Source: an uncultured Prevotella sp.
Lineage (GTDB): Bacteria; Bacteroidota; Bacteroidia; Bacteroidales; Bacteroidaceae
NCBI GenBank assembly: GCA_934203355.1
Contig: CAKPZC010000003.1
Coordinates: 13,014 to 77,013 of the forward strand
Direction of reading: 5' to 3'
Length of the DNA stretch: 64,000 bases
Of this stretch, positions 12,539-24,744 are shown in pieces. Below the pieces are notes generated by a model. The model did not search any database, had not been told where the DNA came from, and saw nothing but the letters and a program-made list of their open reading frames with translations. Position numbers and translations under genes: made by a program. Within the stretch, counting starts at the first letter, position 1, and every line of letters begins with the position of its first letter.

Positions 12539-13022
12539 ATGCGAAAGACCATTCTTTTATTTGCTTCTTTATTGCCGATGTTTGCAATGGGAGCTTCTGA
12601 CGATGCTGGGGGGGGTAAATGCATTACGCCTTCATAAAGCATCTGGTGATGAGGTGACAATTTTATTGAACGAACGTCCTCTTGTCACTTTTAATAACAA
12701 CGACTTGGTAATCACCACCCACATGGACGAAGTTAGCTATCCTTCGGCAGATGTTCTTAAGCTAACTTATGTGAATGTGAATCCTACGAATATCAACGGT
12801 ATTGAGCACTCGGGAACCCTCTATTCATTAATAGGGGACGAATTAAAGATAGCCAATGCAGTTCCTGGCACTCGCGTATTTGTTTATACTGTTGACGGTA
12901 CGCTTCTCACTTCTTCCACAACTGACACACAAGGCTGTTCGACATTGCCCATTGCGGGAATGTCCGGATCGGTGTATGTTGTAAAAACCTCGTCTGTAAC
13001 TTTTAAAATCCGTAAGCTATGA
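12539..13022 (+). CDS. Small secreted protein with C-terminal sorting-like domain, frameshifted in a G8 tract
   Basis: The ATG at 12539 opens a good signal peptide (MRKTILLFASLLPMFAMGAS), but reading runs into a run of eight G at 12608-12615 and stops at 12635-12637 after 32 codons. The continuation lies one base later in phase and is open to 13022. With seven G the product would be one protein of about 160 residues: signal peptide, a beta-rich segment, and a C-terminal region (TRVFVYTVDGTLL to FKIRKL) like the beta-sandwich sorting domains of type IX secretion cargo. The stop overlaps the next ATG by ATGA. A contingency (phase-variable) gene is likely; a sequencing or assembly error in the homopolymer is the alternative. 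Function unknown. Confidence 0.7.
12608..12615. repeat. G8 homopolymer tract within the secreted-protein gene
   Basis: Eight consecutive G after codon 23. A change of one base moves the downstream part into frame. Such tracts are classic sites of slipped-strand mispairing. Confidence 0.85.
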
Positions 13023-16240: not shown

Positions 16241-16679
16241 TTAGAAATATGATTGTCGGCGTTTCTCAAAATCCGTGCTATTCGCCGGCGAAGCCCGAGC
16301 GTTTCATCCGTGAAATCCTTATACGACCAGGATGCCATGCGCCAATAATTCTGTGGCTTCTGCGGGATCTGTGGGAGATATATACAGAAAAATACCGTTG
16401 AAAATGCACTGTGAAAATCGGTTCTATCTGCCATGAATCTGCCATTCGCTAATTTATTGTGCTTCAATTTATTACGATATTTATGTCACTTATGTCACTT
16501 TTTTTACAAAAACATTTTTTCGTACCATGAAGCAGTTTATTACTCAAGTTTCGAATGTCTTCTACATGCTATCAGTAAACAAGTAGACAGACGAATAAGG
16601 ATATTTGCCTTGACATTTAAAGCCTTGCAAACAACGATGTTTTAAGAACATTTGTTCGGCTTTGCCGCTTGCTTGCAAG

Positions 16680-16736
16680 AACTTCACGAGCGAAGCGAGT
16701 TATCTTCCAATAACTTCTTTCGCTTGTGAAACTTGA
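16680..16736. repeat. Interspersed repeat element, short copy
   Basis: ACTTCACGAGCGAAGCGAGT, then ATCTTCCAATAACTTC and the near-palindrome TTTCGCTTGTGAAA: the same parts as the copies near 3753 and 51479, but with a single AATAACTTC unit instead of a tandem array. Confidence 0.65.
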
Positions 16737-16841
16737 ATTTCTTATATAATAATGTGTATTTCTCGTTTTTGGCTTAATATTCCGTTTCTTCTTTCTTACT
16801 TTAATGTTTCTAAATGTTAAGAGTCTGAAAACGTGTTAATT

Positions 16842-16874
16842 TTTGGAGGGGGGGGGAAATTTGTAGTATATTTG
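16842..16874 (+). promoter_or_regulatory. Fimbrial operon promoter with G9 tract in its spacer
   Basis: TTTG (16842-16845) and TATATTTG (16867-16874) match the -33 and -7 boxes, separated by 21 bases that include nine consecutive G (16848-16856). The other six full promoters I found in this window have spacers of 19 or 20. Loss of one or two G would give those lengths. The start would lie near 16879, leaving a leader of about 120 nt before 17001. A phase-variable promoter is inferred. Confidence 0.65.
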
Positions 16875-17000
16875 AAGCAGAAAAAAACAACTAAATCTAT
16901 GACGTTTTTTATTAGCTATAATTATGCCCTTAAATGAACTAGGCAAGAGGATATACTACACTTAACTGATTAAATAACTAAAATACAATATATAACTCTT

Positions 17001-18269
17001 ATGAAACTACTGATTAATCTTGCAATATTATTCCTATGCTGTATAGGTGTGTCAGGTCAGACCTATCGCAAGGAGATATGTGTTGGTTTCCGTGTAAGCT
17101 CAAGCGAGATAGATCTTGACTACGGCGACAACATTTCCAATCTCGCCGAGATTGTAGGTTTGCTGACCGACGTTCAGCGTAATCCCTATATGGAAATTAC
17201 GGGCGTGTCGTTCTGCGGCTCGGCCTCGCCAGAAGGCAAGTCTCTGCAGAACAAGCAGCTTGTGGCAGACAGATGCGCAAGCCTTGAGCATTACATTAGG
17301 CAAAGGGTAGACTTGCCAGACAGCGTAGTGTTCAAGTGCGACAAGACAGATGTGTGGCAGAAGCTCGCCATATATGTCGAACGATCGGACATGCCACACA
17401 AAGACGATGTGCTCTACCAGATAAGGCAGACCCCGGAATACACCTACAACGCCAAAGGTACACTTGTTGACAGTCGCAAGAAACGACTGATGGACATGGA
17501 TTTCGGACGCACATGGAATTATATGCTGCGAGAGTTCTTCCCCTCAATACGCAATGCGAGCGTACTGATGGTATACATTAAGCAAAAAGAAACTAAACAA
17601 ACAGAAATACCCCAAGAGGTAAAAACACCCGTTCAATCTGTTGACACAATACCCCAAGAAATATCACCCGAGGAAACTCAGCCTATGCCAGCCGCGAAGA
17701 GCAGCCGCTATTTCGCCCTAAAGACGAATATGCTCTACGACGCCCTTGCTATTCCGAATATCGGTGTCGAGGTGTCGCTTGGCAGACGATGGTCTTTAGC
17801 AGCCGACTGGATGTACGCATGGTGGAGCAACAGCAGCAAGCATCGCTACTGGAGAGTGTATGGCGGAGGACTATCGGCAAGAAAGTGGTTTGGACACGCT
17901 TCGGAGCAGAAACCCTTGCAAGGCCACCACATAGGAATCAACGCCCAAATCCTGACCTACGACTTTGAGTTTGGAGGCAAGGGATATATGGCAGGCGAAC
18001 CTGGAGGCTCGCTGTGTAACCGACTAAACTATGCCTTTGGTGCCGAATATGGCTACTCAATGCCAATAGCCAAGCGACTGAACATCGACTTCAGCCTTGT
18101 GGCTGGATATATGGGCGGACGCTACTACGAATACATTCCACTCGACGGACACTATGTGTGGCAGACCACCAACAACCGACACTGGTGGGGACCTACAAAG
18201 ATTGAGGTGACGCTGGTGTGGCTCTTAGGCAATAACAATTATAATGTGAAGAAAGGAGGCAACAAATGA
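17001..18269 (+). CDS. DUF3575 protein of a fimbrial locus
   Basis: A 422-residue protein. Signal peptide to about residue 20 (LCCIGVSGQ); residues 25-190 form an OmpA-like periplasmic segment with SFCGSASPEG and ADRCASLEHYI; a Pro/Glu-rich linker covers about 195-235; the C-terminal 190 residues form a membrane beta-barrel region of the DUF3575 type, starting ALKTNMLYDALAIPNIGVEV and ending in KIEVTLVWL. Proteins of this kind are typically the first gene of Bacteroidales fimbrial loci, probably as outer-membrane anchoring or assembly parts. The stop overlaps the next start (ATGA). Expression should depend on the G9 promoter 127 bases upstream. No Shine-Dalgarno is present, as usual in the phylum. 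Confidence 0.82.
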   Translation: MKLLINLAILFLCCIGVSGQTYRKEICVGFRVSSSEIDLDYGDNISNLAEIVGLLTDVQRNPYMEITGVSFCGSASPEGKSLQNKQLVADRCASLEHYIRQRVDLPDSVVFKCDKTDVWQKLAIYVERSDMPHKDDVLYQIRQTPEYTYNAKGTLVDSRKKRLMDMDFGRTWNYMLREFFPSIRNASVLMVYIKQKETKQTEIPQEVKTPVQSVDTIPQEISPEETQPMPAAKSSRYFALKTNMLYDALAIPNIGVEVSLGRRWSLAADWMYAWWSNSSKHRYWRVYGGGLSARKWFGHASEQKPLQGHHIGINAQILTYDFEFGGKGYMAGEPGGSLCNRLNYAFGAEYGYSMPIAKRLNIDFSLVAGYMGGRYYEYIPLDGHYVWQTTNNRHWWGPTKIEVTLVWLLGNNNYNVKKGGNK

Positions 18270-19336
18270 TTAACGTGATGAATAAAGGCAGAGTGGCTGC
18301 CTGGGCTGCGTCGCTCGCCGTTGCTACCATGACTTCGTTGTCTTCATGCGACCATAAGGAGCTATGCTTCGACCACAACGCCCATGCGCCAAGATTTCAG
18401 TTGCATGTGAGTGCCAACTATCAGCAGGAATGGGAGGCAGGAAAGGATGGGTCGACCCACTGGATTGACTTCCCCACATGGCTCGAAACCTATGGTATGC
18501 AATACGACGACCTGCGACCGCTGATTCCTGCCGGATTGCGAATGCACGATTTCCCAAAGGAGGGACAGAGCGACATGATAAACATGGCGGCTATGGGCGA
18601 AACCGTTGGTCTGCGTCCTGGAGAGCATCAGCTGTTGTTCTACAACAACGACACCGAATATATCGTTTTCGACGAAATGTATTCGTATGCCTCTGCTAAG
18701 GCCACTACACGTACCCGTACCCGATCAACTTATTTGGGCAATCCGTTCAACAGCCAAACCGGAGCGAAGGAGAACACCGTGAACATGCCCGACATGCTAT
18801 ACGGCAACTACAACAAGAGCTACACCTCGGAGAGAACCTCGGAGCCCACGCTTATGGAGGTGACCATGCACCCACTGGTGTTCAAGTATCTTGTGCGCTA
18901 CGAGTTCAGTAAGGGATTGGAGTATGTCAAGCTGACACGCGGAGCCTTATCGGGCATGGCAGCCTCGGTTTATCTGAATAGTGGCTACACGTCGAAGGAG
19001 ACGGCAACGCTGCTCTACGACTGCACTATGGAGCCGTGGGGAGCACAGGCTATAATAACCTCGTTCGGTGTGCCCGATTATCCCAATGGGTACTACTCCC
19101 CAACACGTGCACCGCACAGCAATGCCCTGAATCTTGAGGTGCGACTGAAAAACGGCATCATCAAAACCTTCAACTTCGATGTCACCGAACAGATCAACAA
19201 CCAACCGCAAGGTGGAGTGATTGTGGTGAGCGGCATAGAGATTTCGGACGAGGACGGAAAGCAAGGCAGCTCTGGATTTGATGTCGGAGTAGAGGGATGG
19301 GGCGAGTTTGAAGATGTCGTTATTCCTCTAAAATAA
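18266..19336 (+). CDS. DUF5119 lipoprotein of the fimbrial locus
   Basis: A 356-residue lipoprotein: lipobox SLSSC with Cys28, then a charged stretch and a beta-rich body. The pattern (FQLHVSANYQQEWE early, GEHQLLFYNNDTEYI, a Thr/Arg-rich TRTRTRST segment, and a final VVIPLK) fits the DUF5119 family that accompanies FimB/Mfa2-type fimbrial proteins. Such proteins are probably anchor or accessory subunits. It is translationally coupled to the DUF3575 gene by a 4-base overlap and followed by the fimbrillin after 59 bases. A second in-frame Met at residue 5 could also be the start. Confidence 0.8.
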   Translation: MINVMNKGRVAAWAASLAVATMTSLSSCDHKELCFDHNAHAPRFQLHVSANYQQEWEAGKDGSTHWIDFPTWLETYGMQYDDLRPLIPAGLRMHDFPKEGQSDMINMAAMGETVGLRPGEHQLLFYNNDTEYIVFDEMYSYASAKATTRTRTRSTYLGNPFNSQTGAKENTVNMPDMLYGNYNKSYTSERTSEPTLMEVTMHPLVFKYLVRYEFSKGLEYVKLTRGALSGMAASVYLNSGYTSKETATLLYDCTMEPWGAQAIITSFGVPDYPNGYYSPTRAPHSNALNLEVRLKNGIIKTFNFDVTEQINNQPQGGVIVVSGIEISDEDGKQGSSGFDVGVEGWGEFEDVVIPLK

Positions 19337-22827: not shown

Positions 22828-24744
22828 ATGGAATGTGAAAAAATGGAAAAACAGAAGCCTTATCAATATTACGAACAGCGTTTGCATAGACTTGCCGACC
22901 AAATAGCCGTTCGCCGCCGTCGCAACCGACTCTATGTTGCGGGCGAGATAGCGTCGTTTGTACTCTTTGTGGCTTTGGTGGCAGCCTACGCCATGATGGG
23001 GTGGGGATGGCTGGCAGTATGGCTGGCAGCATTGTCGCTTGTGGCTTATGTAGCGACGCGCCGTATGGACGAGCGCAACGAGGCTCACACCGAATGGCTT
23101 GAGTCGCTGAGCGAGGTGTGTCGTCGAGAACTCGCGTATCTGCATGACGACTTCTCGTCGTTTGACGATGGCGAGCGTTATATAGACGCCTCCCATCCGT
23201 TCACTCTGGACATGGACGTGTTTGGCGAGCAATCATTGTTTCAGCGCATCAACCGCACAGTCACTTCGGGCGGTAGCGACCGTTTGGCAGAGATGTTGTC
23301 GACACAGCCGACAGAAACCTTGAACCACGAGGCCAGCGTCGAGCGTAGCTGTTTTGAGTCTGGACTGTCGCCCATCGAACGCATTCGCCAACGTGCCGAC
23401 GCTGTAGCCCAGCTAAGCCAGTGGCAGGAGTGGCGCACGGAGTTTTGTGCGGTCGGTACTGCAGGCAGAATCGACACCGAAGCTGTGGTAAAAGCCATGC
23501 ACAGAGTGCGCGACATAAAAGTGGCGCGGTGGGTGTTGTCGCCAGTTGCTTCGGTAGTGGCAATGGCGGCTACTACGGGACTTGCAGCCACTATAGCTCT
23601 CGCCGCCCTTAGCGATGTGCCGTCGAGTGTAGCAGTGATGTGGGCATTGGTGCAGCTCGGAGTGGTGCTTGCCTTGTGTCATGGAAAACTGATGGAGGTA
23701 AGCCGAGCCGTAGGAACGTTGCAACGACAGATGGCGGCTTATGTGAAGTTGGTGAGAATGATGAGCGAAGAGAGAAGGGCGACGAGCGAAGATGGTAAAG
23801 AAAAGAGAACAGAATCGCTATGCACCCTGGAGACCGGACTGATAGGACGGCTTGTAGATGCCACGAGTGGAGCCATCGGGTCGTTTCGCGAGGTGGAGAA
23901 GATACTTGCCGGACTCGACCGTCGCGGCAACATTCTCGGACTTGTCTTTGCCGACATATTCTCGCTTAGCGACTATCGCCTGTTGAGACGTTTCGCCACA
24001 TGGCAGCGCCGCTACACGATGCACATGAACCGCTGGATTGCAGCAGTGAGCGAGATGGACGCATTGGTGTCGATGGCTACATTCCGCTACAACGAGCCTC
24101 GTGGCGTTAGGGCACAGTTGGCAAATGGCGACGACGTGGTGTTCGAGGCGCGTGGGCTCTGCCATCCCTTCCTCGGCGACAAGGCTGTGAGCAACGACTT
24201 CAGTATCGACGAGCGCAACTACTATATCATCACCGGAGCCAACATGGCAGGCAAGAGTACTTTCCTGAGGTCGCTCGGGGTGAACTGGCTGTTGGCGATG
24301 TGTGGCATGCCAGTGTTTGCCGACTCTCTGCGACTGTCGGTATTCCCGCTGTTCACAAGTATGCGCACCACCGATGACCTAACACGCGGCATCAGCTATT
24401 TCAATGCCGAGCTGCTGAGGCTGAAGAGTTTGATAGGATTCTGCCGTGCCTATAAGAACACGATGATAATACTCGACGAGATACTCAAGGGCACCAACTC
24501 TGCCGACAAGCTTGGTGGCTCACGCCTCTTTCTTGAATATATATCGCAGAAGCGTGTCACGGGAGTCATCGCCACACACGACCTTGAGTTGTCGCGACTC
24601 GCCGACGAGCGTCCGGCACGCTTCCACAACTATTGTTTCGAGATAGAACTCGGCACCGACGTGACATACACCTATAAGATAACGCCTGGCGTGGCACGCA
24701 ACCAAAACGCCACTTTCTTGCTGAAGGAATTGCTGAAAGAGTGA
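22828..24744 (+). CDS. Membrane-anchored MutS-like ATPase
   Basis: A 638-residue protein with two membrane helices near residues 45-78 (IASFVLFVALVAAYAMM, then WLAVWLAALSLVAYVA). After a helical MutS core-like region comes the MutS ATPase: Walker A TGANMAGKSTFLRS (about residues 469-482), MRTTDDLTRGISYFNAEL, Walker B IILDEILKGTN and a conserved IATHDLEL. The N-terminal mismatch-recognition domain of true MutS is absent. Such proteins occur widely in Bacteroidetes; their role is unknown and mismatch repair should not be assumed. A -7-like TAATTTTG lies at 22804-22811. An alternative start is the Met at 22843. Confidence 0.75.
   Translation: MECEKMEKQKPYQYYEQRLHRLADQIAVRRRRNRLYVAGEIASFVLFVALVAAYAMMGWGWLAVWLAALSLVAYVATRRMDERNEAHTEWLESLSEVCRRELAYLHDDFSSFDDGERYIDASHPFTLDMDVFGEQSLFQRINRTVTSGGSDRLAEMLSTQPTETLNHEASVERSCFESGLSPIERIRQRADAVAQLSQWQEWRTEFCAVGTAGRIDTEAVVKAMHRVRDIKVARWVLSPVASVVAMAATTGLAATIALAALSDVPSSVAVMWALVQLGVVLALCHGKLMEVSRAVGTLQRQMAAYVKLVRMMSEERRATSEDGKEKRTESLCTLETGLIGRLVDATSGAIGSFREVEKILAGLDRRGNILGLVFADIFSLSDYRLLRRFATWQRRYTMHMNRWIAAVSEMDALVSMATFRYNEPRGVRAQLANGDDVVFEARGLCHPFLGDKAVSNDFSIDERNYYIITGANMAGKSTFLRSLGVNWLLAMCGMPVFADSLRLSVFPLFTSMRTTDDLTRGISYFNAELLRLKSLIGFCRAYKNTMIILDEILKGTNSADKLGGSRLFLEYISQKRVTGVIATHDLELSRLADERPARFHNYCFEIELGTDVTYTYKITPGVARNQNATFLLKELLKE

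What the first reader, a model, noticed from the sequence alone, without database searches (positions are those of the whole stretch)
16842..16874. G9 tract inside the promoter spacer of a fimbrial operon: likely phase-variable promoter
The -33 (TTTG) and -7 (TATATTTG) boxes are separated by 21 bases that contain nine G in a row. All six other full promoters I could measure here have 19 (two) or 20 (four) bases. So one G lost restores 20 and two lost give 19. Slippage of the tract would tune or switch a four-gene fimbria. Bacteroidales are known mainly for invertible promoters, so a spacer-length switch would be a different mechanism for the group. Established: slippage in homopolymers and -33/-7 promoters. 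Inferred: that this tract switches expression.
Basis: partly seen in the sequence, partly recalled or inferred. Interest (0 to 1): 0.82.

Follow-up and report, generated by a model that had tools for sequence, protein, structure and literature searches.

The report
Slippery G-tract promoter of gut pili
A run of nine G's sits inside the promoter of a pilus operon in a gut bacterium close to Segatella copri, and comparison with relatives suggests that such runs are slippage-prone switches for pili and other surface genes, though switching at this copy has not been shown.

Summary
In detail: G9 (16848-16856) lies in a 21-nt spacer between TTTG and TATATTTG, before a four-gene type V pilus-type operon (DUF3575, DUF5119, two Mfa_like_1). 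In 59 related loci TTTG is enriched at spacers 19 and 20 (13 and 18 of 158 upstream -7 boxes), not at 21 (3), so tract length should matter here. The tract is part of a pattern: 33 of 88 DUF3575 genes but 8 of 475 other genes in the same loci have a G/C run of 8 or more upstream (p=2.6e-22). A -7 box follows within 35 nt in 22 of 40 tracts (controls 0 and 1). But only 3 of those 22 lie in the spacer, so spacer tuning is a special case. Slippage is supported by other genes: in the closest S. copri genome four, probably five, of nine tracts sit at frame breaks, and its DNA methyltransferase occurs in databases in different frames at its tract. The window's only other G8 also splits a secreted-protein gene. 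Length change at this tract and its effect on transcription are not demonstrated. No report of poly-G slippage promoters in Bacteroidales appeared in my searches.

The parts
16733..16841 (+). upstream regulatory region conserved with the S. copri orthologue; homology of the operon cassette begins at 16733
   Evidence: blastn 93.3% over 5.9 kb starting at 16733; 86 of 105 aligned columns identical over 16740-16840
16842..16845 (+). -33 box TTTG
   Evidence: sequence; TTTG enriched 19-20 nt before -7 boxes in related loci
16848..16856 (+). G9 homopolymeric tract inside the 21-nt spacer (16846-16866)
   Evidence: sequence; enrichment of such tracts upstream of DUF3575 genes
16867..16874 (+). -7 box TATATTTG (TAnnTTTG)
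   Evidence: sequence; consensus as in passages of PMC12632263
16875..17000 (+). initially transcribed region / 5' UTR (start site near 16879 inferred, not mapped)
   Evidence: 118 of 134 columns from -7 to ATG identical to L001, no gap
17001..18269 (+). DUF3575 protein, 422 aa, first gene of the pilus operon
   Evidence: PF12099 E 9e-35
18266..19336 (+). DUF5119 protein, pilus-associated
   Evidence: PF17145
19396..20367 (+). Mfa_like_1 fimbrillin-like protein
   Evidence: PF13149
20439..22547 (+). Mfa_like_1 fimbrillin-like protein, 702 aa
   Evidence: PF13149
12539..13022 (+). second poly-G gene in the window: secreted protein whose signal peptide and body are in different frames, changing at G8 12608-12615
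   Evidence: frames; relatives carry signal peptide and body in one frame

Best explanation
The G9 run is a slipped-strand contingency tract in the promoter of a type V pilus-type operon. Gain or loss of G's during replication changes promoter geometry; in this copy it changes the -33/-7 spacing (21 with G9, on the 19-20 optimum when one or two shorter), so that cells of one population differ in pilus expression. It belongs to a wider class: G/C tracts of 8-15 recur upstream of, and in some lineages inside, DUF3575 genes that lead pilus-type operons in the genus of S. copri and in a second family-level group. Shown: tract, boxes, spacer optimum, enrichment, length differences between species, frame breaks and multi-frame database variants at other poly-G genes. 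Inferred: slippage at this tract, its rate, and its effect on transcription and pili.
For: Spacer optimum 19-20. 33 of 88 DUF3575 genes against 8 of 475 others with a G/C run of 8 or more upstream, p=2.6e-22, with a second mode of run lengths at 8-9. 26 of 28 and 17 of 21 such runs in the kilobase before the domain. -7 box within 35 nt downstream in 22 of 40 tracts, controls 0 and 1 of 40. Tracts inside the reading frame of the same gene family, one with its halves in different frames (L040). In S. copri genome G001 four clear and one probable of nine tracts at frame breaks. Methyltransferase variants: 60 in-frame, 18 with another N-terminus before the tract, 42 starting after it, of the 120 listed. 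Acyltransferase as near-identical full-length and truncated database entries. Window G8 gene split. Tract interval is the least conserved part of the promoter (20 of 27 columns) with 4 nt of length difference to L001.
Against: No length variant of this promoter itself was found: only one relative (G001) holds it among the genomes searched, and it also has a G9. Some orthologous tracts in relatives have equal length (L082/L083, G8/G8). Most relatives do not have the tract in the spacer. 18 of 40 tracts have no TAnnTTTG within 35 nt. Conserved flanks in relatives suggest an extra role. Other G-run measures are not unusual in the window. Truncated database proteins may partly reflect gene-caller start choice.
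Confidence: 0.7

Rival explanations
1. The poly-G is mainly a protein-binding element, of the form C-Gn-TA with AT-rich TTAA-like flanks, shared by promoters of surface genes; its length is held by the protein and slippage is incidental.
For: In 36 tracts of 7 or more upstream of DUF3575, read in G orientation, T follows in 29 and A in second place in 31, and C precedes in 19; similar flanks at other intergenic tracts seen by eye.
Against: Lengths spread from 8 to 15; distance to -7 varies from 14 to 31; tracts also occur inside reading frames; the window and L001 tracts lack these flanks.
Confidence: 0.17
2. Slippage acts, but through the distance between upstream elements and the core promoter (as in Bordetella fim promoters), not through -33/-7 spacing, also in this copy.
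For: In relatives 19 of 22 tracts with a -7 box lie over or above -33; L001 lacks a TTTG at the right distance; the region above the tract is conserved.
Against: This copy has a TTTG at 21 and the tract inside the spacer; 19-20 is a strong optimum.
Confidence: 0.35
3. Chance or assembly error: an ordinary long G run without regulatory meaning.
For: Homopolymers are error-prone; some shuffle controls are unremarkable.
Against: Enrichment p=2.6e-22 at the same gene family in many assemblies; L001 independently has a G-rich tract there.
Confidence: 0.08
4. An invertible promoter, as is usual for Bacteroidales surface loci.
For: One imperfect pair of inverted arms, 16453-16467 and 16872-16886.
Against: The arms are low in complexity and 87% complementary; the left arm lies outside the conserved cassette that begins at 16733. 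Nearby recombinase genes were not searched for.
Confidence: 0.02

Closest known systems
Bordetella fim2/fim3/fimX C-stretch promoters
   Same: G/C homopolymer in a pilus promoter; length reported to change transcription (fim2 10-15, fim3 13-18, fimX C7/C8; passages of PMC1891110); most relatives here have the tract over or above -33
   Different: Other phylum, pilus type and promoter boxes; no fim box or BvgA-like activator identified; here the tract of this copy is inside the spacer
Neisseria porA-type poly-G spacer promoters (recalled, no call)
   Same: poly-G between the two promoter boxes, spacing near an optimum
   Different: Bacteroidota -33/-7 promoter and a pilus operon; no expression data
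Neisseria nadA repeat tract
   Same: repeat number changes spacing of distal promoter elements (abstract of PMC2791445)
   Different: tetranucleotide repeats with a known repressor; none known here
Bacteroidales invertible promoters and phase-variable fimbriae
   Same: stochastic control of surface structures in the same order (passages of PMC12632263)
   Different: DNA inversion, not slippage; no convincing inverted repeats here
Phase-variable type I restriction systems of Prevotella intermedia and P. gingivalis (PMC5690328, main text read)
   Same: phase variation of DNA methylation in the order; S. copri G001 has a poly-G in a DNA methyltransferase
   Different: described there as type I systems structurally similar to that of S. 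pneumoniae; not poly-G and not promoters

Membership tests
Slipped-strand (homopolymer) contingency locus | Homopolymeric tract long enough to slip (about 8 or more G/C; threshold recalled) | tested here: met
   G9 at 16848-16856
Slipped-strand (homopolymer) contingency locus | Located where length change alters promoter or reading frame | tested here: met
   Inside the -33/-7 spacer, spacing optimum 19-20
Slipped-strand (homopolymer) contingency locus | Length polymorphism within a clone or species at this tract | not testable with these tools
   No reads; a single relative holds the promoter. Other poly-G genes show frame variants
Slipped-strand (homopolymer) contingency locus | Expression depends on length | not testable with these tools
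   Needs reporter or RNA data
Bordetella fim-type C-stretch promoter | Tract between an activator site and the core promoter | tested here: inconclusive
   Position fits most relatives but not this copy; no activator identified
Type V pilus (Mfa/Fim) operon | Fimbrillin-family structural genes in the operon | tested here: met
   Two Mfa_like_1 genes; Fimbrillin_C, Mfa_like_1, DUF3868, DUF5119 in tract-bearing relatives
Invertible promoter (inverton) | Conserved inverted repeats flanking the promoter | tested here: not met
   One imperfect low-complexity pair, left arm outside the conserved cassette

The most novel reading that the evidence does not exclude
Gut Bacteroidales, known mainly for DNA inversion, also run a poly-G slippage phasome: type V pilus-type operons in at least two family-level groups carry a promoter module with a variable Gn tract that sets expression, alongside coding poly-G switches in acyltransferases, secreted proteins and a DNA methyltransferase (a possible phasevarion) in Segatella copri.
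Probability: 0.45. Interest if true: 0.86.

Novelty: new variant of a known kind. Interest (0 to 1): 0.74.

Why it matters
If true, an abundant human gut commensal group controls adhesive pili by replication slippage as well as by inversion. Surface heterogeneity in Bacteroidales, now scored largely through invertons, would have a second source that can be read from existing deep metagenomes by counting G's. A slippage-prone methyltransferase in the same species would predict epigenetic heterogeneity too.

Tried and rejected
Inverton: not supported. Leader-peptide frameshift: the short ATG frame at 16899 is not kept in L001. A genus-wide rule 'G8 then -7': pattern rows 31 against 10 for the reversed control with G8 (16 of 150 genomes), 13 against 11 with C8 (9 of 150); rows count a G9 twice, so this alone is weak. 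More copies of this promoter: among 200 genus genomes and 119 relatives (overlapping sets) only G001; the other hits were 24-66 nt pieces; viral contigs 0. Orthologous tract pairs: some differ (L283/L288 G9/G8 at 95% flank identity; L110/L128 G8/G9; L337/L343 G10/G9), others are equal (L082/L083), and many of the 52 pairs come from GC-rich repeat arrays. Helical phasing of tract-to--7 distances: looked at, not convincing. GTTAA repeats above the tract: seen by eye, not tested.

Papers: ten searches were run. The eight on this topic gave no title or abstract start on poly-G slippage promoters in Bacteroidales, but three lists were cut (25 of 145, 15 of 18, 20 of 84 seen). PMC5690328 main text; PMC1891110, PMC12632263, PMC10434189, PMC2831843, PMC12355684, PMC7394358 passages; PMC2791445 abstract and outline; all others listings. 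A survey of type III methyltransferase repeats, recalled, is not held, so no novelty is claimed for the methyltransferase.

Rows dropped: L169 (duplicate of L147); L170 (GC-rich array) (tract group) and 78 but not 26 or 57; 10 of 98 loci absent (6 with under 60 nt upstream, 4 missed by the ORF filter). Loci were chosen from listed hits with a preference for long contigs (58 and 40 taken), not at random.

Full report
What is there. The sequence at 16842-16874 is TTTG, GA, G9, AAATTTGTAG, TATATTTG: a -33 box, a 21-nt spacer with nine G's, and a perfect Bacteroidota -7 box. It precedes by 126 nt a four-gene operon: DUF3575, DUF5119 and two Mfa_like_1 proteins, a type V pilus-type operon. The first protein is 95% identical (best segment) to one of Segatella copri iAQ1173 (L001); the operon DNA is 93.3% identical over 5.9 kb, beginning abruptly at 16733, so the promoter is part of the same cassette. 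The window's own genome is not held.

Is the spacer unusual? In 59 loci from the genus of G001 (the S. copri genome), 158 TAnnTTTG boxes lie in non-coding DNA within 350 nt upstream of an ORF. TTTG stands 19 nt before 13, 20 nt before 18, 21 nt before 3, and 0-5 at each other spacer from 14 to 27. Five other window pairs have 19 or 20. So 21 is off the optimum and shorter tracts would sit on it; the consequence for transcription is inferred.

Is the tract part of a pattern? I took regions of up to 16.6 kb around DUF3575 domains from listed hits with long contigs: 58 in the genus of G001 and 40 in the family of G402 (the record title of its locus says Porphyromonadaceae, and the tool gives no family name). 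In the first set 26 of 28 G/C runs of 8 or more fell in the kilobase before the domain (three of them in one GC-rich array, L170); in the second 17 of 21. In non-coding upstream DNA, 33 of 88 DUF3575 genes against 8 of 475 other genes carry such a run (Fisher p=2.6e-22); run lengths fall from 4 to 7 as elsewhere and rise again at 8-9, up to 15. A TAnnTTTG follows within 35 nt in 22 of 40 tracts against 0 and 1 of 40 in two mirror controls, mainly when G is on the sense strand (20 of 28; C-oriented 2 of 12). The next one or two genes in tract-bearing loci (59 proteins from 31 of 36 loci) match DUF3868 (14), Fimbrillin_C (12), Mfa_like_1 (4), DUF5119 (4) and Mfa2 (1), so pilus operons are well represented.

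Where does the tract sit in relatives? Of the 22, 3 lie in the spacer, 9 overlap the -33 position and 10 lie above it; among the last, L176, L178 and L180 have TTTG at spacer 20, L202 TTG at 19, and L343 TTTG at 21. The window tract, ending 10 nt before -7, is an extreme. In L001 the interval reads ATTTA, G9, A, G3, A6, TGTAG, TATATTTG, without TTTG at the right distance. The interval is the least conserved part of the promoter (20 of 27 columns, against 86 of 105 above and 118 of 134 below) and has 4 nt of gaps, although smaller gaps occur further up too.

Is poly-G slippage real in this group? First, of the first 57 relatives 10 hold a G/C run of 8 or more, and in several it lies inside the DUF3575 reading frame: L004, L041 and L042 with one continuous match across it, L048 open across it, and L040 with its two halves in different frames that exchange in the short stretch holding C9. 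Second, G001 has nine such runs in 3.1 Mb: the pilus promoter; two Acyl_transf_3 genes whose downstream frame keeps only profile positions from 117 on; two secreted-protein genes with signal peptide and body in different frames; a gene of unknown family probably split at it; a DNA methyltransferase (PF01555) in frame across G11; a kinase tail in frame; and one unclear gene. Third, of the 120 listed best hits (of 5,290) to that methyltransferase, 60 begin in frame before the tract: five with three glycines, at least 46 with two, three with one, the rest with altered tracts. Eighteen have a different N-terminus before the tract, of which 13 match another frame of the G001 DNA and one the third frame; 42 begin after the tract, one of them (P0103) 100% identical over its length and standing for 52 contigs. 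One acyltransferase exists as full-length (P0016, 94%, 76 members) and truncated (P0017, 93%) entries. Start choice by gene callers may explain part of the truncated forms. Finally, the window's only other run of 8 G's (12608-12615) separates the signal peptide (ATG 12539) from the body of a secreted protein; close entries in the database do not show it joined either (P0001, 98%), but more distant relatives have both in one frame.

Mechanism. Best reading: slippage makes a mixed population in which promoter geometry, and so pilus expression, differs. In this copy the -33/-7 spacing is the natural target; in relatives the tract would shift upstream elements relative to the core promoter, as described for Bordetella fim (passages of PMC1891110) and for nadA (abstract of PMC2791445). 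Both may operate in one family.

What does not fit. No second copy of this promoter with another length was found. In relatives the tract has conserved flanks, C before and TA after, also at some other promoters, which points to an additional role, perhaps protein binding; the window tract lacks them. Eighteen of 40 tracts have no TAnnTTTG within 35 nt. Simple G-run counts in the window are within shuffle expectation.

Novelty. Homopolymer promoters are known in Proteobacteria and inversion in Bacteroidales; type I phase-variable methylation is known in oral Prevotella (PMC5690328). My eight topic searches found no poly-G slippage promoter in Bacteroidales; subscription papers are not covered and three result lists were cut. 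I rate it a new variant of a known kind.

Noticed in passing
window 12539-13022: Secreted-protein gene split between signal peptide and body exactly at G8 (12608-12615); the only other G run of 8 or more in the window.
   Followed up: yes
L235:2530-4482: S. copri DNA methyltransferase (PF01555) with G11 in its 5' coding region and frame variants in databases: a possible phasevarion.
   Followed up: partly
L240:1935-2690 and L240:9910-10655: Two Acyl_transf_3 genes in a polysaccharide-type gene cluster, each split at a run of eight; full-length copies exist in databases for the second.
   Followed up: partly
L040:6551, L004:6583, L041:3892, L042:6039, L048:5977, L330: G/C tracts of 8-9 inside DUF3575 reading frames of other Bacteroidales.
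   Followed up: partly
tract flanks in L145-L204 and L306-L345: Conserved C before and TA after the G run, in either orientation; no explanation from slippage alone.
   Followed up: partly
L170, L112, L123, L119, L126: GC-rich repeat arrays with many G/C runs between genes in a few genomes; nature unknown.
   Followed up: no
window 22828-24744: A MutS-family gene (MutS_V, MutS_III) follows the pilus operon directly.
   Followed up: no
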